Below, in pieces: positions 19,719-39,460 of a stretch of DNA of 53,416 bases; the stretch's first letter is position 1, and each line of letters begins with the position of its first letter. The DNA lies in assembly GCA_017483665.1 (NCBI GenBank), contig JAFUVM010000035.1, positions 1-53,416 of the forward strand, given 5' to 3'. The notes under the pieces are model-generated. The model made no database searches. It was not told the origin of the DNA and saw only the letters and a program-made list of their open reading frames with translations. A program made the position numbers and the translations under genes. The DNA is from Bacteroidaceae bacterium (GTDB lineage: Bacteria; Bacteroidota; Bacteroidia; Bacteroidales; Bacteroidaceae).

Positions 19719-19894
19719 GAAGAGCGTGGCGCTTATTTCGGAAGAGCGTGGCGCTTATTTCGGAAGCACGAGGCGCTTATTTTGGAAGCACGAGGCGCTT
19801 ATTTCGGAAGCACGAGGCGCTTATTTCGGAAGCGCAGGGCGCTTATTTCGGAAGCGCGTGCCGTGTCGGGTGGAAGCGCGTGCCGTGTTGATGA
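19719..19894. repeat. 22-nt tandem array, eight units (13+9 structure), locus 1
   Basis: Eight consecutive units of exactly 22 nt start at 19719, 19741, 19763 and so on to 19873. Each unit begins gaag. The first six combine a 9-nt part (agcgtggcg, cacgaggcg or cgcagggcg) with cttatttcg or cttattttg. The last two carry cgcgtgccg followed by tgtcgggtg or tgttgatg. It lies 3' of the membrane AraC-type gene. Related arrays are at 29253, 33853 and 39391. Confidence 0.9.
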
Positions 19895-19921
19895 CCGGGG
19901 AACGGTCATCCACTCGCCGCC

Positions 19922-20040
19922 CTGTCGGATTTGCAATCCGACAGCAGGGAATATAAGCATTTGAAATGCGATAAAATGACTTTCGGGATTGCAAATCCCT
20001 ATATTCCCCACGTGCGGATTGCAAATCCGCACGAACGGGT
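19922..20040. repeat. Cluster of nested palindromes with a GATTGCAAATC core
   Basis: Hairpin 1 is CTGTCGGATT / AATCCGACAG (19922-19944). Hairpin 2 is GGGATT / AATCCC (19985-19999), inside a wider pair GGGAATATA (19947-19955) and TATATTCCC (20000-20008). Hairpin 3 is GTGCGGATT / AATCCGCAC (20012-20032), followed by GAACGGG. They resemble REP-type extragenic palindromes. The third is the element that interrupts the transposase at 13174. Confidence 0.75.
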
Positions 20041-20131
20041 GTCGGTAACCGCGAAATGCCCTTTGCACGCATCCTCAACGGCGAAACGTAAATAATTGCC
20101 GCTTTTGTTTGGCTATATCCCCAAATTATCG

Positions 20132-20139
20132 TAACTTTG
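20132..20139 (+). promoter_or_regulatory. -7 element TAACTTTG for the small membrane-protein pair
   Basis: TAACTTTG matches the consensus. It rules out a TTG start at 20137 and makes the ATG at 20149 almost leaderless, so the ATG at 20170 is preferred. Confidence 0.65.
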
Positions 20140-20169
20140 CGACAGACAATGAAGCCAATAACAACGAAA

Positions 20170-20445
20170 ATGACAACCAGACGCGAAAGGTCGAAGCCAC
20201 AAAAGACGCTGGAAGAGAAGCTGTCAGACAAGAGCGGAGGACAAGACCCGAAGGTTAACCTGCGGAAAGAGAAACTCGCTAACTATCTGATTGACGTATC
20301 GAAGTACGTCCTTACGGGTGTTGTCATTACGTCGCTATTCAACGATGTCACGGACAAAACTGTCATCTACCTTATCGGGCTGAGCATTGTTTGTCTGACA
20401 TTATGGTCTGGAATTATATTAACTAATAAAAGAAAGGGCAGTTAA
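20170..20445 (+). CDS. Small membrane protein (DUF6722-like)
   Basis: The product is about 91 residues from Met at 20170; an ATG at 20149 is possible. It has a very basic N-terminus (TTRRERSKPQKTLEEKLSDK), then LRKEKLANYLIDVSKYVLTGVVITSLF and a second hydrophobic segment, VIYLIGLSIVCLTLWSGIIL. This gives a two-helix membrane protein with a positive cytoplasmic tail. The arrangement resembles Bacteroidales proteins I know as DUF6722; that match is from memory. Function unknown. A 36-codon membrane peptide gene follows after one base. Confidence 0.6.
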   Translation: MTTRRERSKPQKTLEEKLSDKSGGQDPKVNLRKEKLANYLIDVSKYVLTGVVITSLFNDVTDKTVIYLIGLSIVCLTLWSGIILTNKRKGS

Positions 20446-20446
20446 T

Positions 20447-20557
20447 ATGGGAATGTATTTAGTTGGACTCTTTGTTGGTCTGCCGTGCTTGGTGTTCCTT
20501 ATCTTCTGCTACACCCCAAAGGGAAAGAAGTGGAGAGAAGCGAACGGATTGCTTTAG
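20447..20557 (+). CDS. 36-residue single-helix membrane peptide
   Basis: A short frame begins one base after the stop of the preceding small membrane-protein gene: MGMYLVGLFVGLPCLVFLIF, then CYTPKGKKWREANGLL. One transmembrane helix is followed by a basic tail, which would remain in the cytoplasm. Tight coupling and plausible codon use suggest a real partner of the upstream gene. There is no family assignment. A hairpin follows 14 nt downstream. Confidence 0.5.
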   Translation: MGMYLVGLFVGLPCLVFLIFCYTPKGKKWREANGLL

Positions 20558-20571
20558 CAGGGCTCTAAGAC

Positions 20572-20608
20572 AACGCACCCCGAGGCTCGGATGGCTTCGG
20601 GGTGCGTT
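20572..20608. terminator. Bidirectional hairpin between convergent genes
   Basis: A perfect 12-bp stem AACGCACCCCGA / TCGGGGTGCGTT encloses a 13-nt loop. It lies between the membrane peptide gene (+) and sufS (-), with no clear T-tract on either side. Confidence 0.6.
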
Positions 20609-20624
20609 GCGCTTGGGCGGATGG

Positions 20625-21914
20625 CTAAAACATCTGACTGACGCGGCGGATGCCTGCGACCAGGGCATCGACGTCGTCCCTTGTGTTGTAGAGGGCGAAG
20701 CTGGCACGGCAAGTGCCTTCGATGCCAAGGCGATGCATCAGGGGCTCGGCACAATGATGCCCGGTGCGGACGGCGATGCCGAGGCGGTCGAGCAGCGTAC
20801 CCATGTCGAGATGGTGGATATTGCCGACTTGGAAAGAAATGACCGCATCGTGCTGTTCCACATCCCTCGGGCCGAAGATGTGCATGCCCTCCACTTCGTT
20901 CAGGCGCTGCATGGCGTAGGCCGTCAGGTCGCGCTCGTGGGCTTCGATGGCATCGAAACCAAGGGTTGAGACATAGTCCAGCGCTCGGGCCAGACCGGTG
21001 GAGGCCACGTAGTCGGGCGTTCCGGCCTCGAACTTATAGGGAAGGTCGTTGAAGGTTGTGCGCTCGAAGCTGACCGTCTTTATCATCTCGCCGCCTCCCA
21101 TGTAGGGCGGAAGGCGGTCCAGCCACTGCTCCTTGCCGTAGAGCACGCCGATACCCGTCGGGCCATATATCTTGTGACCGCTGAAGGCGAAGAAATCGCA
21201 GCCGAGCTCCTGCACGTCGACCTTCATGTGGGGTGTGCTCTGTGCGCCGTCGATGAGGACCGGCACGCCGTGCTCGTGGGCGATGCGGACGATGTCGCGG
21301 ACGGGATTGACCGTGCCCAGCACGTTGCTGACGTGCGTCAGGCTGACAATTCGGGTGCGGTCGTTGAAGAGCTTCTCGTACTCGTCCATGCGGAGAAGGC
21401 CGTCGTCGGTGATGGGCACGACACGGAGCCGGATGCCCAGCCTCTGCTGCACGAGCTGCCACGAGACGATGTTGCTGTGGTGCTCCATCTCGCTGATAAT
21501 GACCTCGTCGCCTTCCTTCATGCAGGCCTGGCTGAAGCACGACGCCACGAGGTTGATGCTCTCCGTGGTGCCGCGGGTGAAGACGATCTCCGACGTGCTG
21601 CGGGCTCCGAGGAAACGGCGCACGGTCTCGCGGGACGCTTCGTGCAGCTCGGTGGCCTGCTGCGAGAGGAAGTGTACACCGCGGTGCACGTTGGCATTCA
21701 CGTTGTAGTACTCGTCCGTCATGGCCTCGACGACGCTCCGGGGCTTCTGCGTCGTGGCGGCATTGTCGAGATAGACCAGCGGGTACTTGCCGTATATCTT
21801 CCGCCCCAGGATGGGGAACAGACCCTCACTAACCATCGGACCCTCCCCCTGCCCCTCCCTTGTAGGGAGGGGAGAAGTTACCTTATTTGACTGAATATCT
21901 TTGTTCTTTTCCAT
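20625..21914 (-). CDS. sufS: Cysteine desulfurase SufS (group II)
   Basis: PLP enzyme that removes sulfur from cysteine and supplies it to the SUF Fe-S cluster scaffold. PLP-binding Lys248 lies in FSGHKIYGPTG, the catalytic persulfide Cys388 in RTGHHCAEP. YLDNAATTQKP and EMEHHSNIVSW are family motifs. The enzyme body begins near residue 31 (GLFPILGRKIYGK). The preceding stretch (SPLPTREGQGEGP) is encoded by a G/C-run palindrome and is not part of the family. An alternative start at Met27 (21836) would leave that palindrome untranslated, with its GGAGGG close to the ATG. It is the last gene of sufBCDS; no sufE/sufU homolog lies beside it. Confidence 0.95.
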   Translation of the reverse strand: MEKNKDIQSNKVTSPLPTREGQGEGPMVSEGLFPILGRKIYGKYPLVYLDNAATTQKPRSVVEAMTDEYYNVNANVHRGVHFLSQQATELHEASRETVRRFLGARSTSEIVFTRGTTESINLVASCFSQACMKEGDEVIISEMEHHSNIVSWQLVQQRLGIRLRVVPITDDGLLRMDEYEKLFNDRTRIVSLTHVSNVLGTVNPVRDIVRIAHEHGVPVLIDGAQSTPHMKVDVQELGCDFFAFSGHKIYGPTGIGVLYGKEQWLDRLPPYMGGGEMIKTVSFERTTFNDLPYKFEAGTPDYVASTGLARALDYVSTLGFDAIEAHERDLTAYAMQRLNEVEGMHIFGPRDVEQHDAVISFQVGNIHHLDMGTLLDRLGIAVRTGHHCAEPLMHRLGIEGTCRASFALYNTRDDVDALVAGIRRVSQMF

Positions 21915-21966
21915 CTTCTATTACTATTTTCTCCCCTCCCTACAAGGGAGGGGTTGGGGGTGGGTC
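21837..21966. repeat. Inverted pair of G/C-run palindromes around the sufS start
   Basis: Copy A (about 21837-21876) reads ctgcccctcccttgtaggga... on the plus strand. Copy B (about 21929-21966) is nearly its reverse complement (ctacaagggaggggttgg...). Each copy is itself a palindrome (CCCTCCCT / AGGGAGGG). Together they flank the annotated N-terminus of SufS, and copy B touches the sufD stop codon. Confidence 0.85.
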
Positions 21967-23183
21967 TATCCGCACAGCTTGCACCCCTCGCACTTGCTGA
22001 GTTCGCCCCGGAGCCGCTTGTCCACCAGCACATGCAGGCGGTCGCGGAGGGATTCGAGGGGAATGGTCTCGATGACCTCGGTGATGAACGCGGCCTTGAG
22101 CAGCAGGCGGGCCTCCCGCTCGTCGATGCCCCTCTGGCGCATATAGAAGAGGGCCGACTCGTCCATCTGCCCGACGGTGCTGCCGTGACTGCACCGCACG
22201 TCGTCGGCATATATCTCGAGCATCGGCTGTGTGTACATGCGTGCCGAGCGTGTGGCAAGCAGGTTGGCGTTCGTCTCGTTGCTCGACGTCTTCTGTGCCC
22301 CCTCGCGCACCAGCACCCTGCCGGCAAAGGCTCCGACGGCACTGTCGTCGAGGACGTACTTGTAGAGCTCGCTGCTTTGGCAACCGGGCACGGCGTGGTC
22401 GATGAGCGTATTGTTGTCCACGTGCTGCATCTTGTCGGCGATGACACAGCCGCCCAGCGTCACTTCGCTCCCCTCGCCCTGCAGCAGGACGTCGAGGCGG
22501 TTGCGTGTGTGGCCGTTGAAGAGCGTCAAAGAGGTGTGATGCAAGCTGCTGTCGCGTCCCTGCCGCACGAAGACGCTGTTGTAGCGGGTGCAGAGCAGGT
22601 GCGTCTCCTCGATGTCGTAGAGGCTGAGGTGCGAGCCGTTGCCCATCACGACCTCCACGACCTGGTTCGTCAGGAAGCGGCTCTGCGAGGCAGCACGGTC
22701 GGTGATGATGATGTCGGCCTCGGAGAGTTCGTCCATCACGACGAGGATGCGGCGGCAGACCATCGTGTCCTGTTCGCCCTTGAGGATGTTGCTTATCTGT
22801 ATCGGATGCTCCACCTTGACGCCCCGCGGCACGTGCACGACCAGCGTATCGACGCTGAGCATCGTGCTTAGGGCAACGATGCTGTCGGTCGCATCCGCTA
22901 CATTATTATATAATACGCGCACGCGCGGGTCGGCCTCCGCAAGGCGGAAGCAGTAGGGCGGAAGCTTTCCGCCGAGCGGTGCGAGCGCGATGCCGTAGTT
23001 GGGCGAGAAGTCGGCTTCGACCTTCGCATAGCGGTAGCGCTCTACTTTCGGCGAGGGGAAGCCCTGCTCGGAGAACGTCCGCAGGGCAGCCTCGCGGCAG
23101 GCATTCATCTCGCTGCAGCTGCGGGAGGCAAGCACGTCGCGCACTTCGCCGTAGAAATCTATGTGTTGCTTTGTTGCTTCCAT
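21966..23183 (-). CDS. sufD: Fe-S assembly scaffold protein SufD
   Basis: Member of the SufB/SufD family, 405 residues, cytoplasmic. It forms the SufBC2D complex that builds and transfers Fe-S clusters. The right-handed beta-helix core includes VHVPRGVKVEHPIQISNIL, GCVIADKMQHVDNNTLIDHA and ADDVRCSHGSTVGQMDESALFYM. That last block holds the conserved His of SufD, with RGI...EARLLLKAAFITEVI behind it. The C-terminus CEGCKLCG has three cysteines, as in other Bacteroidales SufD (recalled, not checked). It is third in the operon, and a GGGATTA repeat separates it from sufC. Confidence 0.95.
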   Translation of the reverse strand: MEATKQHIDFYGEVRDVLASRSCSEMNACREAALRTFSEQGFPSPKVERYRYAKVEADFSPNYGIALAPLGGKLPPYCFRLAEADPRVRVLYNNVADATDSIVALSTMLSVDTLVVHVPRGVKVEHPIQISNILKGEQDTMVCRRILVVMDELSEADIIITDRAASQSRFLTNQVVEVVMGNGSHLSLYDIEETHLLCTRYNSVFVRQGRDSSLHHTSLTLFNGHTRNRLDVLLQGEGSEVTLGGCVIADKMQHVDNNTLIDHAVPGCQSSELYKYVLDDSAVGAFAGRVLVREGAQKTSSNETNANLLATRSARMYTQPMLEIYADDVRCSHGSTVGQMDESALFYMRQRGIDEREARLLLKAAFITEVIETIPLESLRDRLHVLVDKRLRGELSKCEGCKLCG

Positions 23184-23211
23184 TGCTTCTCGTCTCTTCC
23201 CTGTCTTTCTT

Positions 23212-23300
23212 TTTCGTTATAACGTTATAACGTCATTTCGTCATAACGAAAGATTCCCTATTCCCTAATCTCTAATCCCTAATCCCTAATCCTTAATCCC
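23212..23300. repeat. CGTTATAACG inverted array plus CCCTAAT 7-nt array between sufD and sufC
   Basis: First, TTTCGTTATAACG and CGTCATAACGAAA form an inverted pair (about 23212-23252). Then cccta-type units of 7 nt follow (ccctatt, ccctaat, ctctaat, ccctaat, ccctaat, ccttaat; about 23256-23297). The sufC stop codon and its last residues (GIKD) fall inside the second array. Confidence 0.85.
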
Positions 23301-24038
23301 TTTTATTATCCAGTCGAAGCCTCGGCTTTCTATCTCTGCGGCAAGCTCGGGGCCGCCGGTCCGAACGATGCGACCGTCGATGAGGACGTGCACGACGTCC
23401 GGCTTCAAGTAGTCGAGCAGGCGCTGGTAATGGGTGATGACGATGGCACTCGTCTCTGCTGTGCGCAGTTTGTTGAAGCCTTCGGCCACAATGCGCAGGG
23501 CGTCCACGTCGAGACCGCTGTCCGTCTCGTCGAGTATGGCAAGCTTCGGTTCGAGCATCGCCATCTGGAAGATTTCGTTGCGCTTCTTCTCTCCGCCCGA
23601 GAAGCCCTCGTTCACGCTTCGGCTCGCCAGCTTGCTGTCCAGCTCCACGATGGCGCGTTTCTCCCTCATGAGCTTGAGGAAGTCGCCGGCCGGCATGGGG
23701 TCGAGGCCCTGATACTTGCGCTTGGCGTTGAGAGCGGCACGCATGAAGTTGACCATCGACACGCCGGGAATCTCGATGGGTTGCTGGAAACTGAGGAAGA
23801 TGCCTTCGTGGGCACGCTCTTCGGGCTTGAGGGCGAGCAGATCCTTGCCGTTCCATGTGATGCTGCCCTGCGTCACCTCGAAGGCCGGATGCCCGACGAT
23901 GACGTTGGAGAGCGTACTCTTTCCGGCCCCGTTGAGGCCCATCACTGCGTGTATCTCACCGTCGCGGACGGTCAGGTTCACGCCCTTCAGTATTTCTTTG
24001 CCGCCTGTGCTGGCATGCAGGTTCTTTACTTCTAACAC
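23286..24038 (-). CDS. sufC: Fe-S assembly ATPase SufC
   Basis: ABC-type ATPase of 250 residues that drives the SufBCD scaffold; cytoplasmic, not a transporter. Walker A is GLNGAGKST (34-42), the Q-loop is in FLSFQQP, the signature is FSGGEKKR (146-153), Walker B is LAILDETDSGLD with Glu171, and the H-loop is ITHYQRL with His203. The SufC-specific DSGLD in place of SALD is present. The last residues come from a short repeat array, which changes only the extreme C-terminus. It lies between sufB and sufD in the operon. Confidence 0.97.
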   Translation of the reverse strand: MLEVKNLHASTGGKEILKGVNLTVRDGEIHAVMGLNGAGKSTLSNVIVGHPAFEVTQGSITWNGKDLLALKPEERAHEGIFLSFQQPIEIPGVSMVNFMRAALNAKRKYQGLDPMPAGDFLKLMREKRAIVELDSKLASRSVNEGFSGGEKKRNEIFQMAMLEPKLAILDETDSGLDVDALRIVAEGFNKLRTAETSAIVITHYQRLLDYLKPDVVHVLIDGRIVRTGGPELAAEIESRGFDWIIKGIKD

Positions 24039-24041
24039 CTT

Positions 24042-24080
24042 TTCGATATTTCGTTATGTCGTTATGACGTTGTTTCGATG
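24042..24080. repeat. CGTTATGACG-type repeat between sufC and sufB
   Basis: cgatatttcgttatgtcgt and the following tatgacgttgtttcgatg contain the same cgttat/tgacg words as the sufD-sufC gap, partly palindromic (TTTCGTTATG...). Confidence 0.6.
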
Positions 24081-24099
24081 ATTCGCCGGGCAGGGCTGT

Positions 24100-25542
<1,443 letters not shown>

Positions 25543-26677: not shown

Positions 26678-29302
26678 ATGAAGAACATGCGATTACTGCT
26701 GATTGTCTTGACGCTTGCCTTGGGCGGAGGGGCGGCTTACGGCGAACAGGAACTACGGCTGTGGTACACGCGGCCGGCTGACGGATGGCTCGAGGCTCTG
26801 CCCATCGGCAACAGCCACCTGGGAGGCATGGTCTACGGAGGCACCGAGACGGAGGAAATATGCCTGAACGAGGAGACGTTCTGGAGCGGACGACCCTACG
26901 AGAACAACAGCCGGGAGTCGCTCGCAGCACTGCCCGAGGTGCGCCGACTCATCTTCGAGGGCAAGGAACAGGAGGCCGACCGACTCATAAGCCAACACAT
27001 CGTCAAGGGTCCGCACGGCATGCGATACCTGCCGCTGGGCAGCGTGCGGCTCTCCCTGGGGCACCGCGACGTCAGTCACTACGTGCGCGACCTGGACCTG
27101 ACGAACGCCACAGCCTCCACAAGCTACATATATAATAATGTAAAGTACGAGCGGACGGTTTTCGCATCGCTTGCCGACGACGTCATCGTCTGCCACATGA
27201 AGGCCGGGCGGCGCGGGGCCCTATCGGTGGGCATCGACTTCGCAAGTCCGATGCAGGCGGAGGTTGTCAGCTCACTCGAAGCGGACAGTGACGGTCTGCC
27301 CTGCATGTTGTCCGCCACCGTGGCAGGCGTTGCTCAGGAAGGCATCGAGGCCGGACTGAAGGCGAACTGCAGCGTGACGGTCCGGACGGACGGTCGTGTC
27401 AGCCAGCACGAAGGAGGGCTCGACGTGACAGACGCCACGACTGCCACTATCTTCATCGCAGCGGCCACCAACTTTGTCAACTATCATGACATCAGCGGCA
27501 ACGCCTCTGCGAAGAGCCGCCACGCGCTGGAGGCCCTGCAGGGCAAGTCGTACCGGCAGCTTCTGAAGCGCCATACAAAGAAATATCAAAAGCAATTTGA
27601 CCGGGTCTCACTAGTTCTGACTAGAGAGACTAGAGGGACTCGTGAGACTAGAGAGACTAGTGAGACTAGTAAGACTAGTGAGCCTAGTAAAACCAGCCTG
27701 CCCACCGACGAGCGCCTCGCTGCCTTCGAGAAGGATGCAAGCGACTTGGCTCTGGTCTCCCTCATGATGCAGTACGGGCGCTACCTGCTCATCGCGTCGA
27801 GTCAGCCGGGCGGTCAGCCGGCCACGTTGCAAGGCATCTGGAACAACAAAGTCGATGCGCCGTGGGACTCGAAGTACACCATCAACATCAACACCGAAAT
27901 GAACTACTGGCCGGCGCTGGTCGGCAATCTTGCCGAGACGCAGCAGCCTCTCGCCAGTATGCTCGAGGACCTCAGCACGACGGGGGCCGAGACTGCGCGG
28001 ACGATGTACGGCTGCCGCGGATGGGTGGCGCACCACAATACGGACCTCTGGCGCATCGCCGGGCCGGTGGACGGCACGCCCTGGGGCATGTTCCCGACGG
28101 GCGGAGCATGGCTCGCCACGCACCTCTGGCAGCAATACCTCTTCACGGGCGACAAGACGTTCCTGGCCCGTTGCTACCCCATCATACGCGGTGCGGCCGA
28201 CTTCCTGGCGGACTACATGCAGACGTACCCCGAATGGGGCGAGGTGAAGCAGGCCGCAGGCTGGCTGATGACCGTGCCCACCGTTTCGCCCGAGCACGGT
28301 CCGACGGGCAAAGGCACCAACGTCACCGCCGGTTCCACCATGGACAACCAGATAGCCTTCGACATCCTTTCCGCCGCAGTCAAGGCCGCCAAGATTCTCT
28401 GCAAGGAAGATTCTTCATTCTTCACTCTTCATTCTTCACTCAAAAAGCTCCCGCCCATGCAGATAGGACGGCACGGGCAGCTGCAGGAATGGCTCATCGA
28501 TGCCGACGACCCGCGCGATGAACATCGCCACATCTCGCACCTCTACGGGCTCTACCCCTCCAACCAGATTTCGCCTTACAGCCATCCGGAGCTCTTCGCG
28601 GCGGCTGCCAATACATTGCGTCAACGCGGCGACATGGCAACGGGCTGGAGCCTGGGATGGAAGACGAACTTCTGGGCGCGGATGCTCGACGGAGGCCACG
28701 CCTTCCGCATCATCAAGAACATGCTGCACCTGCTGCCCGACGATTCCCGGACACGCGAGTTCCCCTTGGGCCGCACCTACCCGAACCTCTTCGACGCACA
28801 CCCGCCCTTCCAGATTGACGGCAACTTCGGCGTGTCGGCAGGCATCATGGAGATGCTTCTCCAGAGCCACGACGGAGCTGTCCATCTGCTGCCCGCCTTG
28901 CCCGACGAGTGGCAGAGCGGCCGTGTCAAAGGGCTCAGGGCACGCGGCGGATTCGTGGTCAGCGAGGAATGGAACGGCGGTGAGCTGACCCGTGCCGAAG
29001 TGACCTCCACCATAGGCGGCACCTTGCGTCTGCGTTCCTACGTCCCGCTCCGCGGCAAGGGTCTCCGGGCGGCTTCCGGTCCTTGTCCCAACGAACTCTT
29101 CGCCCCCGCCGCCATCCGCCAGCCCCTCCGCTCGCCCGAGCAGAAGGACCTCCAGCCGTTGCCCCTCCGCAAGGTCTACGAGTACGACCTCCAGACAGAG
29201 CCGGGCCGCACCTATCGCTTCGCCAGGAGCAAGGCCGCGCCGAGTATTGATTCCCGACACGGCACGCGCTTCCAAAATAAGCACGAGGCGCTTCCAAAAT
29301 AA
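26678..29302 (+). CDS. GH95 alpha-L-fucosidase-like enzyme
   Basis: Exported inverting fucosidase-family enzyme of 874 residues. It starts at 26678 with a signal peptide ([22 protein letters not shown]). The N-terminal domain has [16 protein letters not shown] and [13 protein letters not shown]. The (alpha/alpha)6 barrel carries the substrate/base asparagines in [11 protein letters not shown] and the conserved Asp in [14 protein letters not shown] is the probable region of the general acid. Two repeat-derived insertions lie in frame: nine T-R/S-E-type tripeptides at about residues 315-338, and [10 protein letters not shown] at about 580. The last 14 or so residues ([16 protein letters not shown]) come from a 22-nt repeat array. 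The catalytic core appears intact. Confidence 0.93.
27609..27691. repeat. In-frame ACTAG+4 nine-nt array inside GH95
   Basis: Units of exactly 9 nt start at 27620: actagagag, actagaggg, actcgtgag, actagagag, actagtgag, actagtaag, actagtgag and cctagtaaa. Each encodes one tripeptide (TRE, TRG, TSE, TSK). The unit architecture (CTAG core plus variable four) is the same as in the rimP-nusA gap. Confidence 0.9.
28406..28446. repeat. In-frame TTCACTC/TTCATTC 7-nt array inside GH95
   Basis: Five 7-nt units (ttcattc, ttcactc and so on) lie between SFDIL-barrel codons and LPPMQIG. They encode a serine/phenylalanine-rich loop. Same family as 1-122 and 43657-43719. Confidence 0.85.
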
Positions 29303-29385
29303 GCACGAGGCGCTTCCAAAATAAGCACGAGGCGCTTCCGGAATAAGCACGAGGTGCTTCCGAAATAAGCGCGTGCCGTGTCGGG
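29253..29385. repeat. 22-nt tandem array, five units, with 19-bp terminal inverted repeats, locus 2
   Basis: CCCGACACGGCACGCGCTT (29253-29271) and AAGCGCGTGCCGTGTCGGG (29367-29385) are perfect inverted repeats. Between them, units of 22 nt start at 29269, 29291, 29313, 29335 and 29357, each cttccaaaataag (or a variant) plus cacgaggcg. The array fills the gap between the converging GH95 and HExxH genes and provides the GH95 stop codon. Confidence 0.92.
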
Positions 29386-32390: not shown

Positions 32391-33707
32391 TCAATTGGTT
32401 TTAGCGGCTTTGAAGCCGATGCTTTCTACGGCACGGAGCACCTCGGCCTCGTCGGGCGAACCGGCAACGAGGGCCTTGCCTTCGCGGAGCGACACCTCGA
32501 CGTTCTCCACGCCCGGGAGCGATGCGATGGCCTTCCTGACGTTCTCGGCGCAGTGGTTGCAGTTCATGCCTTCGATGTTGTAAGTGACTCCCTCTGCTTC
32601 CGAGTGGGAGAGTGCTTCGTGGTGGTGATGATGGTGGTGACCGAAAGGCCAGAGGGCACGGACCAGAAGGACGAGCAGCAGGCCGGTGCAGATGTAGGAG
32701 AAGAGGCCGATGCCGTCCTCGTGACAGGCTGCGTGCTGCATGACGGGGACGGTGAACCACTCGCGGGGCAGCAAGTAGTCGATGCCGACGCCGAAGACGA
32801 TGGCTCCGGCAATGATGGAAGCGAGATAGATGAGCATCGAGCGCTTGCCCAGCACCTTGCCCACGACGAGGATGCTGGCGGCGTTGCTGGCCGGACCGGC
32901 CATCAGGAGCACCAGAGCGGCACCGGGCGTCAGCCCCTTCATCATGAGGGCCAGGGCGATGGGGATGCTTCCGGTGGCGCAAAGATACATGGGAATGCTG
33001 AAGGCGAGCACGAAGAGGATGCTGTAGAGGGTGTTGCCTTGGAAGACCGTGAACCAGGAGTCGGGCACGGCCGCCGTGATGATGCCGGCCACAATCAGTC
33101 CGATGGCGAGCCACTTGCCGATGTCCTCCATCATCTCGCCAAAGGCGTAGGAGAGGGCAGCCAGAAGCCTTGTCCCGAATCCTCGGCGGGTAGAGGGGTT
33201 TTTGTGTGCATGGCATTCCCCCTCCTCGCAGTGAGAATATGTATTTGCACTTCCCTTCTCCCCTCTCTTCGGAGTGGAGTCGGAGGTGATTCTTCCCTGG
33301 GATTCTGCGTCAAGCGCGTTGCACATGGCGCCTCCGAAGACGGCCGTCAGCAGGGCCACGACGGGGCGGATGACGGCGAAGGGCAGTCCCATCAAGCTGT
33401 AGGTGGCGATGATGCTGTCCACACCCGTCTGCGGTGTGGCGATGAGGAACGAGATGGTGGCACCCTTGCTGGCGCCCTCGCGACGGATTCCCATAGCCGT
33501 TGGGATGACGCCGCACGAGCAGAGCGGCAGGGGGACGCCGAAGAGTGCTGCCAGCACGACGCTCCGCAGCGAGCGGTCGCCAAGGTATCGCGTATAGAGG
33601 GTGCTCGGCACGAACTCATGCATCAGCCCGGCCAACAGGAATCCCAGCAGCAGGTAGGGCGACATCTCGCAGAGCAGCGCCCATATTTCCGACAGTATGT
33701 TAATCAT
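32391..33707 (-). CDS. SO_0444-type Cu/Zn efflux permease with fused HMA domain
   Basis: Inner-membrane permease (438 residues, about eight helices) of the DUF318/ArsP-like family. LCSCGVIPTAMG (about 62) and AGPASNAASILVVG are the family's twin motifs. A Cys/His-rich loop (SHCEEGECHAHK, about 160) and a run of seven histidines before EALSHSE probably bind metal. A C-terminal HMA domain (about 365-438) has GMNCNHCAENV with the CxxC pair. It probably exports or detoxifies heavy metals, with Cu(I)/Zn likely. The loop at about 143-175 (TPKRGEKG...NPSTRRGF) looks repeat-derived at the DNA level. The HExxH gene follows in the same transcript. Confidence 0.87.
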   Translation of the reverse strand: MINILSEIWALLCEMSPYLLLGFLLAGLMHEFVPSTLYTRYLGDRSLRSVVLAALFGVPLPLCSCGVIPTAMGIRREGASKGATISFLIATPQTGVDSIIATYSLMGLPFAVIRPVVALLTAVFGGAMCNALDAESQGRITSDSTPKRGEKGSANTYSHCEEGECHAHKNPSTRRGFGTRLLAALSYAFGEMMEDIGKWLAIGLIVAGIITAAVPDSWFTVFQGNTLYSILFVLAFSIPMYLCATGSIPIALALMMKGLTPGAALVLLMAGPASNAASILVVGKVLGKRSMLIYLASIIAGAIVFGVGIDYLLPREWFTVPVMQHAACHEDGIGLFSYICTGLLLVLLVRALWPFGHHHHHHHEALSHSEAEGVTYNIEGMNCNHCAENVRKAIASLPGVENVEVSLREGKALVAGSPDEAEVLRAVESIGFKAAKTN

Positions 33708-33758: not shown

Positions 33759-33852
33759 CGAAATAATAACGAACATTAAGTATGAAGTCCGAATGAAAAG
33801 TCCCTTCTCCTGTCAAAATCATCAAAAGTAGGTACATGGACAGCGCCACGCG

Positions 33853-33975
33853 CTTCCAAAATAAGCGCCAGGCGTTTCTGAAATAAGCGCGAGGCGCTTA
33901 TTTCAGAAGCGCACGCCGTGTTGGGCATAAGAGCGTGCCGTGTTGGGCATAAGCGCACGCCGTGTTGAAGAACGC
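33853..33975. repeat. 22-nt tandem array with an orientation switch, locus 3
   Basis: Units start every 22 nt at 33853, 33875, 33897, 33919 and 33941. The first two have the 13-mer as cttccaaaataag or tttctgaaataag, the third as cttatttcagaag (opposite orientation), the last two as tgttgggcataag. The 9-mers are cgccaggcg, cgcgaggcg, cgcacgccg, agcgtgccg and cgcacgccg. The array lies 3' of the DUF4294 gene, in the 324-nt gap before the permease promoter. A small cggatttgaatccg palindrome follows near 34006. Confidence 0.88.
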
Positions 33976-34031: not shown

Positions 34032-34667
34032 TCACAGTTGCCCTGTCTCCACTTGGCGGACGACGCGTTCGATGAGTTTGTCCTCCTCTTCGGGGTGGTA
34101 CTCCTTCTTCAGGCTGGCACGGAAGGTCCAGGCAAAGACCTGGTAGAAAGCGGCTCGCGCCGGGCCGAGGAAGGCCTGCACGATTTCGTACGACGACTGG
34201 TTGCATTCCCTGTCCACAAGCTTGATGAGGAGCTTGCCCTGACTGTAGGTGAGCTTCTTCATCTGCGGCGTGTACATCTCTTTTATCTCCTTTTCCACCG
34301 CACTGATATGGGCCTGTTTCTCCTTTTTGGTGGGGATAGCTTCCAACGCCTCGTAGGTCTCCTCGATGAGGGCATTGGCCTGCTGGGCGATGGGCAACAC
34401 CTTCTTCACGTTGTAGACAAGGCGGTTGTAGGCGCGGCGCTGCTTCTCGCTCTTGAACTTCAGGGGCGGATAGACCCACAGCTCGGGCAGGAGGTAGCAC
34501 CACATCGTGTCGCCATTCTCCACGACGGGCTTCGCGTAGCGGTACACCTGCAGCTTGAGCTTGTAGTTGACCGGCTCCTGGGGCAGCAGCTCGTCGTCCT
34601 CCTCCTGGGCGCAGACAAAGCCGCTCAGGAGCAAGGCAAAGGCCATTATCGACAGTTCCCTTATCAT
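34032..34667 (-). CDS. DUF4294 domain protein, exported
   Basis: About 211 residues, starting at Met on 34667; a start at 34679 would fall in the promoter. Signal peptide MIRELSIMAFALLLSGFVCAQ. The body contains LPELWVYPPLKFKSEKQRRAYNRLVYNVKKVLPIAQQA, typical of DUF4294, and a long basic/helical C-terminal half. It is probably periplasmic. The family is common in Bacteroidetes with no known activity. Single gene with its own promoter. Confidence 0.8.
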   Translation of the reverse strand: MIRELSIMAFALLLSGFVCAQEEDDELLPQEPVNYKLKLQVYRYAKPVVENGDTMWCYLLPELWVYPPLKFKSEKQRRAYNRLVYNVKKVLPIAQQANALIEETYEALEAIPTKKEKQAHISAVEKEIKEMYTPQMKKLTYSQGKLLIKLVDRECNQSSYEIVQAFLGPARAAFYQVFAWTFRASLKKEYHPEEEDKLIERVVRQVETGQL

Positions 34668-34676
34668 ATTGCGCTG

Positions 34677-34684
34677 CAAAAGTA
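34677..34684 (-). promoter_or_regulatory. -7 element TACTTTTG for the DUF4294 gene
   Basis: Minus-strand TACTTTTG, 10 nt before the ATG at 34667, decides against the upstream start. Confidence 0.6.
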
Positions 34685-34783
34685 CGAAGAATTCGTGAAG
34701 TATGCAGTATGCAATATGAAGAATTAAAGGTTTCAGGCTCAGAATTATGTTTTTTTAATTCTTCGTCCGGCGTTCCCTTCGTT

Positions 34784-36376
34784 TCACTCCTCGACGGGTG
34801 CCAGCAGTTCGCCGCAGATTTCTTCGGCCCGACGGATGCGGTTCCACACCGTCTGCCGCTTGGCGTCCATGATGGCGGCTATCTGCGAGGGCGTCATGCC
34901 CGTCTTGAGCAGACATATCGTGCGCAGCAGCGGTTCGTGCAGATTGCCTTGCATCTTCTCCTGCACCGCCTGCAGGAAGCCCGGGTACATGGCTTCCGTG
35001 GCGGCCATCAGGTCCTTCCAGGCATCGTCCTCCACCCGCTCCATGCCGGCGGCGGCACTGCGGAAACGCTCGATGACGCCTTCCGCACCGCCCTTCACGT
35101 CGCCCATCAGGGCTATCTGCGTCAGCTTCCTGTTTATCTTGTCCTTCTGCGTCAGCTCGCGGTCCTTGCTGACGATGGCTTCCCGGAAACGTCTCTTCCG
35201 GTAGACATGGAGCGCGAGCAGTCCCATGACGACGCTCAGCAGCGACAGTCCTACAATGGCGGAGAGGAGTATGATGCGTTCGTCGCGCTGCATGAGGGCA
35301 CGTTCGCGGTCCTTGTCGCGGTAATAGATATAGGTATCGCGGGCGCGTTGTGTCTCCTCGAAGGCACGCCGGGCGATGATGGAGTCGTTGGTCTCGTACT
35401 GCCGGCATCCCCACCAGGCCGCCTGCCGGAAGTCGCCCTTACGGTAGTGGCAGCGCTGCAGTCCGGCCGACGCCTCGTAGCGTCCCGCAAGGCTCTGCTC
35501 GCCGTCGTAGTATGTACGGTAGTGGACGATGGCCGAATCCGTGCGGCCTGCGTGCTCGTGGACCAGGGCCAGACTCAGCTCGTAGTTGTGCGGTCGCTGC
35601 TCTGCGGGCAGTTGTTGCAGCAGACTGATCAGGGTGTCCACCTTGTCGTAGCACTCGTACTTGGCATACGTCGCCAGCATGCCGGAGAGCACCTTGCCGT
35701 ACTTTGTCGGGAAATGCTCGCGGCGGATGACTTCGTAGGCACGGTCGCAGTACGCGATGCAGCGCAGGGTGTCGCCCAGATGCCTGTACGCCGTCGCCGC
35801 ATCCATCAAGTACCATCCCATGTTACGGCCGCCCTCGCGGGCAATATCCACGGCCTGCAGCGCCGCATCCAGCTCTTCCTCGTAGTTGAGCAACAGCATG
35901 TAGAGGTACCGTAGCTGCGACAGCGCGTTCTGCCATATCAGGGTGTCGGCCTCCGTGCTCTGTGCGGCGATGTCGACAGCCCTCTGGAAGTGCTTCATGG
36001 CCTGTGGGTAGTCCTTCAGGTCGCGGTAGGCGCTGCCCACGTAGAAGCAAGCCCGCTCGCAGCTGACAGCATCCGTCGCGCCGTCGAAATACGCCAGCAC
36101 CTGCCGGGCCGAGTCCGGCGACGACGGCATCGCGTAGCACTTGTCGCGCAGACGGATCGTCAGCAGATCGTACTGCTGCCGCACCCGCTCAGACGCCCCG
36201 CCGACCGAGTCGCGCAGCCCCTCGGCACGCGCCAAGGCCTCCGGCAAAGCGTCCTCCGCCAGCTGCCACGTCTGTTCGATACTGTCCGCCAAACGCCTGT
36301 CCGCATCATTCTCCCCGCAAGCGCAGAGCATGAGCAGCAGACACAGAGAGAAAAAGAAATGTCTCGACCTTCCCAT
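34784..36376 (-). CDS. TPR-containing membrane/lipoprotein with C-terminal HTH-like domain
   Basis: The 530-residue protein starts at 36376 (MGRSRHFFFSLCLLLMLCAC) with a lipobox-like L-C-A-C20. TPR-like repeats run through about residues 60-340 (YFVGSAYRDLKDYPQAMKHFQRAVDIA and others). A transmembrane helix (IILLSAIVGLSLLSVVMGLLAL) at about 365-388 is followed by a coiled linker. The C-terminal helical domain, LLRTICLLKTGMTPSQIAAIM followed by DAKRQTVWNRIRRAEE, resembles a LuxR/DNA-binding HTH. Similar Bacteroidales proteins link periplasmic TPRs to cytoplasmic signalling. Target unknown. Upstream ORF extensions to 36589 are noncoding, because a promoter lies at 36402. Confidence 0.78.
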   Translation of the reverse strand: MGRSRHFFFSLCLLLMLCACGENDADRRLADSIEQTWQLAEDALPEALARAEGLRDSVGGASERVRQQYDLLTIRLRDKCYAMPSSPDSARQVLAYFDGATDAVSCERACFYVGSAYRDLKDYPQAMKHFQRAVDIAAQSTEADTLIWQNALSQLRYLYMLLLNYEEELDAALQAVDIAREGGRNMGWYLMDAATAYRHLGDTLRCIAYCDRAYEVIRREHFPTKYGKVLSGMLATYAKYECYDKVDTLISLLQQLPAEQRPHNYELSLALVHEHAGRTDSAIVHYRTYYDGEQSLAGRYEASAGLQRCHYRKGDFRQAAWWGCRQYETNDSIIARRAFEETQRARDTYIYYRDKDRERALMQRDERIILLSAIVGLSLLSVVMGLLALHVYRKRRFREAIVSKDRELTQKDKINRKLTQIALMGDVKGGAEGVIERFRSAAAGMERVEDDAWKDLMAATEAMYPGFLQAVQEKMQGNLHEPLLRTICLLKTGMTPSQIAAIMDAKRQTVWNRIRRAEEICGELLAPVEE

Positions 36377-36401
36377 GTAAGTAGTGTTTTGTTTAGATGC
36401 G

Positions 36402-36409
36402 CAAATATA
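36402..36409 (-). promoter_or_regulatory. -7 element TATATTTG for the TPR/HTH gene
   Basis: Minus-strand TATATTTG, with TTTG near 36430-36433 as a possible -33 element. A 48-bp element shared with the LRR gene promoter starts 20 nt further upstream. Confidence 0.7.
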
Positions 36410-36452
36410 TAGCTTTTCTTCATTGTGTGCAAACGGTTTCTCTCCCTCGCGG

Positions 36453-36500
36453 CGAAATTTCGGTACAAATTGCTCGAGATTTGACAACTTGGGACATTTT
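36453..36500. promoter_or_regulatory. Shared upstream element, copy 1
   Basis: gaaatttcggtacaaatt followed by ...atttgacaacttgggacat is repeated at 36918-36970 with about 41 of 49 identities. Copy 1 lies just above the -33 region of the TPR/HTH gene, in reverse orientation to it. Candidate operator. Confidence 0.55.
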
Positions 36501-36590
36501 TCCCCCTCCCTCCCGCCCCGTACACCGCCATTCCGCCCCGAAAACACTGCCCCCGCACGGATGACACGAAACGAAACTGAGAATTTCAAC

Positions 36591-36745
36591 CGCGGATTAA
36601 ACGGATTAAACGGATTTTCGCAGCGAGAGATTACGACGGATTGAACGGATTGAACGGATTATCGCAGCGAGAGATTATGACGGATTGAACGGATTGAACG
36701 GATTATCGCAGCGAGAGATTATGACGGATTGAACGGATTACGACT
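36591..36745. repeat. ACGGATTGA 9-nt units inside a 44-bp tandem repeat
   Basis: The marker cgcagcgagagatta occurs at 36619, 36663 and 36707, exactly 44 bp apart. Each block holds acggattga or acggattaa units of 9 nt. It fills part of the 700-nt gap 36377-37076 between divergent genes. The rest of that gap holds the two promoters, the shared element and a further repeat at 36765-36830. Confidence 0.9.
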
Positions 36746-36764
36746 GCGGAGGATTTTTTCTTTA

Positions 36765-36830
36765 ACCACGAATTGCACGGATTACACGTGTTTTTCGTGT
36801 TTTTCGATGTTCTCTTTTTAACGCGTAATA
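36765..36830. repeat. CACGAATTG / ATGTTCTCTTTTTAA repeat
   Basis: ttaaccacgaattgcacgga is followed by cgtgtttttcgatgttctc and then tttttaacgcg. The reverse complement (gttaaaaagagaacatcg) matches the core of the repeats at 53061 and 53174. Confidence 0.6.
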
Positions 36831-36917
36831 TCGTGAGTCGTCCGCGAATTGCCATAAACATTTCATGCCGGACATGCCGTTTTGCCTTGCCCTGCGACCC
36901 GAATTCCGGTCCCCGAG

Positions 36918-36970
36918 CGGAAATTTCGGTACAAATTTACCGGAATTTGACAACTTGGGACATAATTTTC
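36918..36970. promoter_or_regulatory. Shared upstream element, copy 2
   Basis: gaaatttcggtacaaatt followed by taccggaatttgacaacttg and then ggacataattttc. It ends directly at a possible -33 TTG (36971) of the LRR gene promoter. It is the counterpart of copy 1 at 36453 and is oriented with the gene. Confidence 0.55.
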
Positions 36971-36993
36971 TTGCTCCGCCTGCAGAAAAGACC

Positions 36994-37001
36994 TAACTTT
37001 G
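36994..37001 (+). promoter_or_regulatory. -7 element TAACTTTG for the LRR surface protein gene
   Basis: TAACTTTG, with TTG at 36971 as a possible -33 element, 76 nt before the ATG at 37077. Confidence 0.7.
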
Positions 37002-37076
37002 CCACCGAATTGCATAAAACAACACAAAAACGTGCAACATCGAAAATTCAGAACTCAACCCCAATTCATTATAGCT

Positions 37077-39335
37077 ATGAAAAAAGGATTATTATTCATT
37101 ACGACGATGCTGCTTACTGCAGCAGGGAACATGCTCGAAGCACAAGACCTGACGTTATCCGACATACAGAAAAGTGGATGCCAAAGGGTTAATCAAGATG
37201 ATGAAGAAGATGATGATGAAGGTCTGAAACAGACACAGACAATTATCTTGCAAAAAGAAGGAGACATACTCTCAGTGCAACTGCAAGGGTTTGTCAGCAA
37301 CTGTGCCACGGAGGGGTTCGACGTTACGCCAAGTATAAACGGCGGAAACGACGGAACGCCCTATTCTGTGTCCTTACAGGTAGTGCCCATTTTTGGTGAT
37401 TTAGTGGCGGATTGTGAATGTCCCTTCAACGTCTCTTTCACCTTGCATGGCCTCGAGGCAAACAGCTTCCGCTTTTCGTGCTGGTGGTATTATGGTCAGG
37501 TCAGCCTGACGGAAGGCGAGCCGTTGACGCTGGAGAGTGTCACGGAATATGCCTCAAAAGATGACTGGTTTTATATTTTAAATAAAGTGACTATCGCTGG
37601 TGAGGTGAATTACACTGCTGCTATCGAAGGTCAATTCGGAAAGGATGGGGATATAATCATTCCTGATATGTTATACCACGAGGGACAGATGTACACAGTA
37701 ACCGAAATTATGGAAGGTGTATTCTTCAATTCCAAGTCGCTGACCTCCATTACCCTTCCTCCTACCATAACCCGTATCTGTGAAAATGCTTTTGCCTATT
37801 GCAGCAGCCTGAAGGATGTTTACTGCTACTTCGAGGACGACCTGCCCGCCGTAGAAGCATCTGTCTTCGCAAACACACCCATCGCCGATGCCACGCTCCA
37901 TGTGCCGGCTGCATCAATAAACATGTACAAGGCGACATCGCCCTGGAACAAATTCGGAAGCATCAAGGGCACAGGCTCTGTGACCATCGACGGCTTGAAT
38001 TACTACCTGTTCACAGGAGGCAACGAGGCAGCACTGTACAAGGGGAATGAATGGACAGGCGAGCTGGACATCCCGTCTGAAGTGAAGTTCCAGGAGCAGA
38101 CATACACTATAACGGGTACGACGAGGGGCGCGTTTGCAGACTGCCCCGAGCTGACAAAGGTGAGGATACCTAAGACTCTTGCGAAGATATGGGACAGCTA
38201 TACATTCTTCTACAATCCTTACGAGGATGTGCCTACAGGTTTGATTAATCCCATTTACATGAATATTTTCACGGAATGTACTGCTCTTGAGTCAATAGAG
38301 GTGGAGGAAGGGAATCCTGGCCTGAAGTCCGTCGATGGCGTCCTCTTCAGCCAAGACGGTATCGGACAATACTATTATCGGACAAACAAATACTACGGGA
38401 CAGGACTATATTGCTATCCAATGGGGAAACAGCAAAAGACGTATGCCATACCCGAGGGCGTGGAGTGGATTGGCGGAGCAGCTTTTTATGACAATCAACA
38501 CCTTGCTTCGCTGACGATACCACGCAGCATGAAGCATATTTGTTATAACGCGTTCAGTGGCTGCAGCAATCTGATGGATGTCTATTGCGAGGCAGAAGAT
38601 GTCCCCATCGCATGGGATGTTGTATTCAACGACATCCCCAACTCTGCCACGCTCCACGTGCCGGCAGGCTCTATAGATAAGTACAAGGCAACATCACCCT
38701 GGAGCCATTTCGGGAATATCGTGGCATTGAACGACCCCGTCACCTTTACCGCGGGGCAGATGGCAACGATTGTCCTGCCGACGGAACCGGATGCGAGCAA
38801 AGGGAAATACTACGGCTTGGCGGGATGCGAGGGGAACGAGATTGTCTTCGGGCAGGAGCTTCACCCGCAGGCGCACGTACCTTATATTATTGTGCCGTAC
38901 GAGGACTTCAGCATCGACCCGGCGGAGCTGGACCTGGCGGGACTGACGGGCGACACCGTCTCCGTGGACGGCATCTCCTTCATCGGGGCGTACCGACAGA
39001 CTGAGCTGAAAGTACAGAAGGACCACGAATACGTCTTCATCGACACGACCCCCGACTGCCAGTACGGAGACAGCGTCAGAGAAGTAGTCGGTGCCCTGCG
39101 TGCCTATCTGACGGTCAACTGGGATGACCCCATCGACCACGGCGGCGCAAGGAGTCCCCTGCAGAAGATGGAGATTGTCCTGCGCGACCACGGCACCGGA
39201 CTGGAAACGGCCGGACACTCGCCCCAGAGCTTCGACTGCCAGGTCTACGACCTCAGCGGAAGACAAGTCCGCACCATGCGCCCCGGGCATCAACCGGGCA
39301 TCTACATCGTCGACGGGAAGAAAACCGCCTACTGA
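37077..39335 (+). CDS. BspA-like LRR surface protein with C-terminal tail
   Basis: 752 residues, starting at 37077 with a signal peptide (MKKGLLFITTMLLTAAGNMLEA). The opening part (about 25-165) is a Bacteroidales module with LQGFVSNCATEGFDVTPSI and ECPFNVSFTLHGL; I know it only as a domain of unknown function. LRR_5 repeats follow from about 210 to 560 (LTSITLPPTITRICENAFAYCSSL; LASLTIPRSMKHICYNAFSGCSNL), separated by ATLHVPAASINMYKATSPW-type sequences. The tail QVYDLSGRQV...PGIYIVDGKKTAY matches the other secreted proteins. It is the divergent partner of the TPR/HTH gene, with a shared upstream element. Probable surface adhesin or binding protein. Confidence 0.9.
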   Translation: MKKGLLFITTMLLTAAGNMLEAQDLTLSDIQKSGCQRVNQDDEEDDDEGLKQTQTIILQKEGDILSVQLQGFVSNCATEGFDVTPSINGGNDGTPYSVSLQVVPIFGDLVADCECPFNVSFTLHGLEANSFRFSCWWYYGQVSLTEGEPLTLESVTEYASKDDWFYILNKVTIAGEVNYTAAIEGQFGKDGDIIIPDMLYHEGQMYTVTEIMEGVFFNSKSLTSITLPPTITRICENAFAYCSSLKDVYCYFEDDLPAVEASVFANTPIADATLHVPAASINMYKATSPWNKFGSIKGTGSVTIDGLNYYLFTGGNEAALYKGNEWTGELDIPSEVKFQEQTYTITGTTRGAFADCPELTKVRIPKTLAKIWDSYTFFYNPYEDVPTGLINPIYMNIFTECTALESIEVEEGNPGLKSVDGVLFSQDGIGQYYYRTNKYYGTGLYCYPMGKQQKTYAIPEGVEWIGGAAFYDNQHLASLTIPRSMKHICYNAFSGCSNLMDVYCEAEDVPIAWDVVFNDIPNSATLHVPAGSIDKYKATSPWSHFGNIVALNDPVTFTAGQMATIVLPTEPDASKGKYYGLAGCEGNEIVFGQELHPQAHVPYIIVPYEDFSIDPAELDLAGLTGDTVSVDGISFIGAYRQTELKVQKDHEYVFIDTTPDCQYGDSVREVVGALRAYLTVNWDDPIDHGGARSPLQKMEIVLRDHGTGLETAGHSPQSFDCQVYDLSGRQVRTMRPGHQPGIYIVDGKKTAY

Positions 39336-39390
39336 CCCCGCAAATAATCAGGGATTACACGGATTGAAGGCTGACTTTAAACCACAAATT

Positions 39391-39460
39391 ACGAATAAGC
39401 GCCTCGCGCTTCCAAAATAAACGCCTCGCGCTTTCGGAAGAAGCACGTGCCGTGTCGCAG
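39391..39460. repeat. 22-nt tandem array, about three units, locus 4
   Basis: Units cttccaaaataaa plus cgcctcgcg (39409) and ctttcggaagaag plus cacgtgccg (39431) are 22 nt each, preceded by a partial unit. The array ends in tgtcg like the other loci. It lies 3' of the LRR surface protein gene. Confidence 0.8.

What the first reader, a model, noticed from the sequence alone, without database searches (positions are those of the whole stretch)
19719..39460. A 22-nt repeat family with a 13+9 architecture at four loci
The arrays at 19719, 29253, 33853 and 39391 keep a strict 22-nt period. Each unit has a 13-mer (cttccaaaataag, or cttatttyggaag in the other orientation) and a 9-mer rich in G and C. 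The 13-mer may flip between loci and even within locus 3, and the 9-mer may be flipped too (cacgaggcg versus cgcctcgtg), yet the period stays constant. Most loci end in a CGTGCCGTG(T)YG word. All four lie at gene 3' ends. A fixed period across orientation changes is hard to explain by simple replication slippage, so an enzymatic or template-based origin is possible. I do not know a described family of this form.
Basis: partly seen in the sequence, partly recalled or inferred. Interest (0 to 1): 0.85.

Follow-up and report, generated by a model that had tools for sequence, protein, structure and literature searches.

The report
Species-specific 22-bp intergenic repeat arrays
A gut bacterium carries many short arrays of a 22-base DNA unit, mostly just behind its genes, and several related species carry different sequences in arrays with the same 22-base step, which suggests that something measures the DNA in steps of two helical turns.

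Summary
The arrays are real: loci 1-3 are clear, locus 4 is degenerate. They belong to a genome-wide family with 207 exact 13-mers in the 3.06-Mb genome against 1 for the reversed pattern. Distances between neighbouring 13-mers are multiples of 22 in 145 of 145 cases in the sampled part of this genome and in 167 of 169 in the sister species. Two conserved half-sites alternate on an 11-bp grid. Spacers change letters but almost never length: about 34 indels expected, 1 seen. Arrays favour gene 3' ends and are found in both genomes at 9 of 10 orthologous sites. Several relatives lack this sequence but have their own high-copy families with a 22-bp step. The apparent flips follow from the near-symmetry of the unit; true flips are rare. 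Best reading (0.45): phased sites for an unidentified dimeric DNA-binding protein, one half-site per turn. Against a single explanation, arrays of two relatives pair as whole-array hairpins. They are not the REPs of the genome's Y1 transposase and, in this genome, not pieces of one longer element. New variant of a known kind; mechanism unproven.

The parts
19714..19890 (-). Locus 1: six core 13-mers (19732-19854) reading CTTATTTYGGAAG on the + strand, flanked in phase by GTGCCGTG-type units
   Evidence: lies behind an AraC-type regulator gene (18608-19702, +) in a convergent gap with an aminotransferase gene (20625-21836, -)
29253..29385 (+). Locus 2: five core 13-mers (29269-29369) between perfect 16-bp inverted flanks (29253-29268 and 29370-29385)
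   Evidence: convergent gap, the stop codon of the GH95 gene (26678-29302, +) lies inside the array
33844..33967 (.). Locus 3: 13-mers ++- at 33853, 33875, 33897, followed in phase by GTGTTGGGCATAAG-type units
   Evidence: between the 3' end of a DUF4294 gene (34032-34646, -) and the start of an ArsP-type permease gene (32391-33707, -)
39391..39456 (+). Locus 4: two degenerate units and a CGTGCCGTG word
   Evidence: not found by TRF or by the cluster scan; between a BspA-type LRR gene (37275-39335, +) and a YhcH gene (39606-40070, +); the sister has an array on the same side of YhcH
19918..20040 (.). Separate REP-like element (GGATTTGCAATCC type) beside locus 1; the same kind flanks the Y1 transposase gene of the genome

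Best explanation
The arrays are phased binding sites, kept at intergenic places mostly behind genes, for an unidentified dimeric DNA-binding protein. Shown: each 22-bp unit holds two inverted half-sites, GCKCTTC and AATAAGCRC, with variable 3-bp stretches between them, so that half-site centres recur every 11 bp, about one helical turn, in alternating orientation; spacing is kept while spacer letters change; arrays are found at the same sites in the sister genome with changed copy number. Inferred: one protomer binds per turn, side by side along one face of the DNA, so that an indel breaks the assembly and is removed by selection; arrays grow and shrink by tandem duplication, which homogenises the 9-mer within an array. 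Inferred with less confidence: the bound array is a barrier behind genes (transcription roadblock, insulator or nucleoid anchor). Relatives have other site sequences at the same step, so partner and sites would change together between species while the two-turn spacing stays.
For: Neighbouring 13-mers at multiples of 22 in 145 of 145 (own) and 167 of 169 (sister) cases. Half-site centres 11.0 bp apart in 568 neighbour pairs; the next commonest distances were 22 with a half-site missing (99). Non-repeat intergenic DNA shows 1527 substitutions to 214 gap openings; spacers need at least 244 substitutions, so about 34 indels are expected, and 1 of 353 spacers has another length. Half-sites nearly invariant (0.93 or more at most positions), centres variable. 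At the pair next to the AAG/CTT ends, 70 of 141 own spacers carry an uncompensated C.T or A.G, only 3 an A.T, so an RNA stem of the unit is not what is kept. 9 of 10 orthologous sites hold arrays in both genomes. One half-site variant is the majority form in 22 of 47 own arrays and in none of 58 sister arrays, a change spread over loci.
Against: No binding protein is known or was found. In G067 and G027 the halves match across the whole array, and symmetry within units is worse than in any of 5000 shuffles, which speaks for hairpins there. The sister shows a weak nested signal too (3 of 2000 shuffles), the own genome none (273 of 2000). Locus 2 and 3 RNAs fold better than shuffled ones (z -4.0 to -5.4). 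The spacing statistic assumes that copying of units and in-register repair do not remove indels by themselves. 13-mers were anchored by sequence, so indels inside them would be missed.
Confidence: 0.45

Rival explanations
1. The arrays act as RNA or single-stranded-DNA hairpin elements behind genes (terminators, 3'-end stabilisers or RNase III substrates; REPIN- or MITE-like), the 22-nt step being two turns of an A-form stem.
For: 3'-end bias: nearer the upstream gene's end in 66 of 87 tandem gaps; convergent excess in own, sister and near sets (Fisher p 0.026, 3e-5, 2e-4). Arrays of near and far species fold strongly (mean z -4.8; 28 of 34 and 10 of 14 below -2), own ones less (mean -1.9; 29 of 65). 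Nested whole-array pairing in G067 (29 of 34 pairs perfect, 0 of 49 within units) and G027.
Against: A hairpin needs no exact 11-bp grid. Unit stems in this genome carry uncompensated mismatches. Among 22 own gaps with a long inverted repeat only 1 has a 22-type array. Orientation relative to the upstream gene is not clearly biased (15:8 and 17:10, p 0.21 and 0.25; pooled 32:18, p 0.065, orthologues not removed). Other-period repeats also often fold (9 of 22, 7 of 24, 6 of 11 below -2). No Rfam family in the window. No convergent excess in the far set.
Confidence: 0.28
2. Neutral minisatellites: replication slippage and unequal exchange made them, and their period is a historical accident or a by-product of how duplications start.
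For: 9-mers homogenised within arrays, copy number differs at orthologous sites, the clade is rich in other tandem repeats of 7, 14, 15 and 21 bases.
Against: About 30-fold lack of length changes in spacers; near-invariant half-sites beside variable centres; the same step of 22 in different sequences of several species; 3'-end bias.
Confidence: 0.17
3. Parts of a mobile element family (BrickBuilt-like MITEs or RAYT-driven REPs), spread by a transposase.
For: Dispersed, intergenic, lineage-specific. BrickBuilt of P. gingivalis is a 23-nt minisatellite with leader and tail (PMC4596501). Locus 2 has perfect inverted flanks. About half of the G067 arrays share flanking DNA, and 19 of 61 sister arrays have a flank matching another array's flank over 60 bp or more. 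REP-like elements sit beside 4 of 51 own arrays.
Against: The own genome's single Y1 transposase gene is flanked by seven REP-like sites and no core 13-mer. G016, G070 and G071 have no Y1_Tnp match, G070 and G071 despite 93 and 80 sites of their family (the assemblies may be incomplete). Own flanks match each other only at the REP-like element, at other 22-mer unit types, in two long pairs (L043/L045, L048/L050) and a few short stretches. Paired flanks stood out in 1 of 47 own arrays, mean 6.3 matches against 6.5 for mismatched pairs.
Confidence: 0.1

Closest known systems
BrickBuilt, a MITE with a 23-nt minisatellite in Porphyromonas gingivalis (PMC4596501: outline, abstract, part 1 of section 7 seen)
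   Same: Intergenic tandem repeat without spacers between units, many copies in one Bacteroidales genome, limited to one species and its kin; the paper also mentions 22-nt direct repeats in strain W83
   Different: BrickBuilt has leader and tail segments with terminal inverted repeats like those of IS5-family elements and a 23-nt unit; the own-genome arrays lack shared leaders and tails. The G067 arrays, partly inside longer shared elements, come nearer to it
REP/BIME/REPIN palindromes and RAYT transposases (PMC3733652 passages; PMC3116915 listing only)
   Same: Short intergenic palindromic repeats, high copy, lineage-specific
   Different: No link to the Y1 transposase of this genome; fixed 22-bp direct period. 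That REP spacing is usually not fixed is recalled
Iterons of plasmid origins (recalled, not from a call)
   Same: Direct repeats of about two helical turns read by a Rep protein
   Different: Sit at replication origins; here the units lie at many chromosomal intergenic sites, with no Rep link tested
Heptamer repeats such as TAACTGA in Beggiatoaceae and some Bacteroidetes (PMC4679880, abstract seen)
   Same: Genome-wide intergenic direct repeats of fixed period, proposed sites for a regulator
   Different: Period 7, mostly just upstream of start codons; here 22 bp and mostly behind genes

Membership tests
RAYT-associated REP elements | The repeats flank, and are moved by, a Y1 (RAYT) transposase gene | tested here: not met
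   Own genome: one Y1_Tnp gene, flanked by seven GGATTTGCAATCC-type sites and no core 13-mer within the stretch tested. G070 and G071: high-copy 22-bp family, no Y1_Tnp match
RAYT-associated REP elements | GTAG or CGTC tag at one end of the palindrome | not tested
   No scan made; the consensus unit CTTCCGAAATAAGCRCNNNGCK as read shows no fixed GTAG
BrickBuilt-like MITE | Shared leader and tail with terminal inverted repeats around the tandem array | tested here: not met
   Own arrays: flanks mostly unshared; flank pairing stood out in 1 of 47. The sister (19 of 61 with long flank matches) and G067 are less clear
BrickBuilt-like MITE | Tandem unit of 23 nt | tested here: not met
   Period 22; neighbouring 13-mers at multiples of 22 in 145 of 145 cases
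CRISPR array | Repeats separated by unique spacers of constant length | tested here: not met
   9-mers repeat within arrays and recur between arrays
CRISPR array | Linked cas genes | not tested
   No cas search was made
Intrinsic terminator | Stable stem followed by a U tract in a consistent orientation to the upstream gene | tested here: inconclusive
   Orientation 15:8 and 17:10, pooled p 0.065; the terminator scan failed on its length limit and was not repeated
Arrayed protein-binding sites (iteron-like) | Half-sites at helical spacing with indels excluded | tested here: met
Arrayed protein-binding sites (iteron-like) | A protein that binds the site | not testable with these tools
   Needs experiment
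Curated RNA family (Rfam 15) | Match at the gathering score | tested here: not met
   0 matches in the window

The most novel reading that the evidence does not exclude
Bacteroidaceae chromosomes carry an unrecognised, fast-evolving system of two-turn-phased DNA sites: on the order of one to several hundred units per genome, with its own site sequence in each species or pair of sister species and presumably its own co-evolving partner, marking the ends of genes or organising the chromosome. The ruler (22 bp) is conserved while the word changes.
Probability: 0.25. Interest if true: 0.9.

Novelty: new variant of a known kind. Interest (0 to 1): 0.7.

Why it matters
Dispersed bacterial palindromes are usually explained by transposases or by RNA hairpins. 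Here the step, not the sequence, is what several related species share, which points to a geometric constraint and makes a hidden DNA-binding or hairpin-reading system testable. Cultured relatives carry similar arrays, for example Phocaeicola coprophilus DSM 18228 (four units in L143). Replacement of the site sequence between close species would be a natural experiment in how a regulator and its many sites change together.

Tried and rejected
Conservation of position between more distant species: five loci carry a 22-nt array in the same gap (gene clusters 11 and 8) with mostly different units. It looked striking, but a permutation test gave 7 shared lineage pairs against 10.4 expected over all gaps and 6.2 over gaps of 60 bp or more (3953 and 2054 of 5000 reached it), so I dropped the claim. 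Notebook entry 2 still calls it a key result; overrides that.

Compensatory change within units: near and far sets 25 double against 341 single-side changes, p 0.068 and 0.081; the own set reached 0 of 1000, but repeats of other periods did too (0.028 and 0.004), and the axis was chosen on the same data, so I use none of it. Palindromes in units: enriched in near and far period-22 arrays (39% and 38% with p 0.05 or less) but only 20% in the own set. Terminal inverted repeats as a rule of own arrays: 1 of 47. RAYT origin. Rfam: none. TRF on two single-match loci of relatives: no 22-bp array.

Branches that did not work: the N4-dyad part and the own and sister part found zero elements because of faulty patterns; answer the flank question. 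Searches counted L100 together with L276, which is the same array; one search repeats the nested test without L100, one search was not repeated (10 of 17 becomes 9 of 16 by reading its rows).

Literature: eight searches of open-licence PMC papers, read as listings only apart from the papers named; one search matched 1,023 papers and showed 12. I saw no description of such 22-bp families there beyond the P. gingivalis work, but subscription papers and preprints are not held.
Full report
What was checked. Loci 1-3 are 22-bp arrays; locus 4 is two degenerate units. Exact CTTCCRAAATAAG occurs 207 times in the genome against 1 for the reversed pattern. In 36 same-genus genomes it occurs 0-2 times each; 19 of all 61 genomes searched, the own included, have a match. 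Genome G061, of the named relative with the closest IF-2 (94% identity; MAG RUG14526, locus L087), has 233; nine other named relatives have 0-1. I call G061 the sister.

Sampling. I fetched 586 kb around listed matches and analysed it with the window (639 kb, 51 clusters). This sample is chosen for arrays and gives no density. The 80 loci around IF-2 were not chosen for arrays; a few of the stretches pooled with them in the 'near' set were taken at single 13-mer matches. Genes were called with a home-made codon-pair caller (coding fraction 0.86).

Anatomy. Distances between neighbouring 13-mers are 22 (142) or 44 (3) in the own sample. In 722 kb of the sister they are 22 (148), 44 (16), 66 (2) and 110 (1), with two exceptions (57 and 24). 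13-mer positions 1-4 and 9-13 and spacer positions 3, 7 and 8 are nearly invariant in both species (0.93 or more), position 8 of the 13-mer slightly less so; 13-mer positions 5-7 and spacer positions 4-6 vary, and so do spacer positions 1, 2 and 9 between two letters. Read this way, the unit is two inverted half-sites, GCKCTTC (7 bp) and AATAAGCRC (9 bp), with 3-bp variable stretches between them, and their centres are 11.0 bp apart in 568 neighbour pairs. True orientation changes inside a cluster are rare: 1 of 145 own and 2 of 169 sister pairs. Other unit types adjoin the arrays in preferred 22-bp phases: GTGCCGTG-type words at two neighbouring registers plus one (32 of 37 own words at phases 15 and 11), CACGTGTCG-type words at phase 13 (22 of 23 in the sister, 12 of 23 own).

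How arrays evolve. In 38 arrays of three or more units, the 9-mer is strongly homogenised within arrays (within/between diversity 0.12-0.49 at variable positions, 0.84 at position 8), while the variable centre of the 13-mer is nearly as diverse within as between arrays (0.77-0.83, still below shuffled). Of 51 own clusters, 10 had both flanks and 15 one flank matched in the sister stretches; 9 of the 10 have arrays in both genomes, with different copy numbers. The sister stretches had been chosen around hits, but about 65 arrays lie in 454 gaps there, so 9 of 10 is far above background. T at unit position 22 is the majority form in 22 of 47 own arrays and absent from the 147 spacers of 58 sister arrays: change has been concerted over loci.

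Constraint on spacing. Aligned non-repeat intergenic DNA of the two species has 1527 substitutions and 214 gap openings, 7.1 to 1. Parsimony needs at least 244 substitutions in the spacers of 99 arrays, so about 34 indels are expected; 1 of 353 spacers differs in length (Poisson 4e-14). Copying of units after mutation, or in-register repair, could inflate this, but hardly 30-fold.

Where they sit. In tandem gaps arrays are nearer the upstream gene's 3' end in 17 of 23 (own), 20 of 27 (sister), 20 of 25 (near) and 9 of 12 (far). Convergent gaps hold 10 of 38, 21 of 59, 12 of 39 and 2 of 18 classified arrays, against 13%, 13%, 9% and 8% of gaps; 10, 2, 6 and 2 further arrays were at edges or in genes and were left out. 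Fisher p for convergent against all other gaps is 0.026, 3e-5, 2e-4 and 0.66; convergent against divergent alone it is 0.28, 0.16, 0.009 and 0.68. G027 (12 of 18 nearer the 3' end, p 0.24) and G067 (5 of 10) show no clear bias on their own.

Relatives. Intergenic TRF arrays with period 22, against 20 and 23, number 71, 2 and 1 (own), 41, 2 and 4 (near, 1.07 Mb), 16, 0 and 4 (far: Bacteroides, Phocaeicola and kin, 0.86 Mb); period-22 arrays in genes number 0, 1 and 0. Period 21 is also common (16, 23, 12), largely from heptamers and other units. In 305 kb from 20 other families of the order there was none with period 22 among 16 intergenic arrays. Not every genus member showed them: G018 had none in 62 kb. 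The units are different sequences, often dyadic. Whole-genome counts show families bound to a species or a sister pair: AATGSTTAASCATT, 93 sites in G070 and 80 in G071, none in four others; TGCATSTACATGTA, 213 matches in G067, 0-3 in five others; CGCCGCRCGCGGNNNTK, 449 in G027, 100 in G063, 13 in G064, 0 in three others. Dyad spacings below 120 bp are multiples of 22 in 72 of 73 (G027) and 33 of 33 (G067) cases.

Results that complicate the picture. In G067 (16 elements) and G027 (30) the halves match across the whole array better than in any of 5000 shuffles, and within units worse than in any: G067 29 of 34 nested pairs perfect, 0 of 49 within units; G027 8 of 112 and 0 of 117. Their size is nearly fixed, three units in 15 of 16 and four in 18 of 27, and about half of the G067 arrays share flanking DNA. 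They look like long-hairpin elements. The window's family does not: nested pairing is not significant in the own genome and weak in the sister, stem mismatches go uncompensated, and only 1 of 22 own gaps with a long inverted repeat holds a 22-type array. Either two functions share one ruler, or one system is read differently in different species.

Mechanism. I rate phased protein sites first (0.45), hairpin elements second (0.28), neutral minisatellites third (0.17) and mobile-element repeats fourth (0.10). No step of binding has been shown, and function at 3' ends is inferred from position only.

Known relatives. BrickBuilt (PMC4596501; outline, abstract and part 1 of section 7 seen) is the nearest described thing; the paper also mentions 22-nt direct repeats in P. 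gingivalis W83. The own-genome arrays fail its leader-and-tail test. REP/RAYT membership fails on the transposase link. Other papers were seen as passages (PMC5771137, PMC3733652, PMC7366714), abstract and outline (PMC4679880) or listing (PMC3116915). Iterons are recalled.

Noticed in passing
window 46505-46653; the same gene gap in L087, L094, L096, L100: The gap holds inverted arms of 7- or 8-base tandem repeats, with a different repeat in different species, so long hairpins are built from species-specific microsatellites. Long inverted repeats occur in 22 of 201 own gaps, none in shuffled ones; 12 of the 22 contain short-period repeats.
   Followed up: partly
window 19918-20040; L030:2993-4092; L036, L063, L066: REP-like GGATTTGCAATCC elements: all 22 sites in the sample lie around the Y1 transposase gene (7) or near 22-bp arrays at four loci (15 in those loci, 13 within 300 bp). 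A RAYT-REP pair seems to live beside some arrays.
   Followed up: partly
own genome C104:670-721 and sister C43:5366-5401: A few matches 22 bp apart to the G067 family word TGCATSTACATGTA: a stray array of another species' family in each of the two genomes.
   Followed up: no
own arrays, 13-mer positions 5-6: The variable centre CCGA often reads CTGA or CCAA, the two products expected from deamination of a methylated CpG; methylation would explain its fast drift (inference).
   Followed up: no
window 36593-36740: A 44-bp tandem repeat (3.4 copies, 95% match) built of CGGATTRAA nonamers; twice the 22-bp step but a different kind of sequence.
   Followed up: no
window 14174-14683: A 228-bp repeat inside the 1670-residue reading frame 13336-18348, probably a repeated protein domain.
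   Followed up: no
L048 and L050: 140 bp beside two arrays on different contigs are 99% identical, a recent duplication or an assembly artefact.
   Followed up: no
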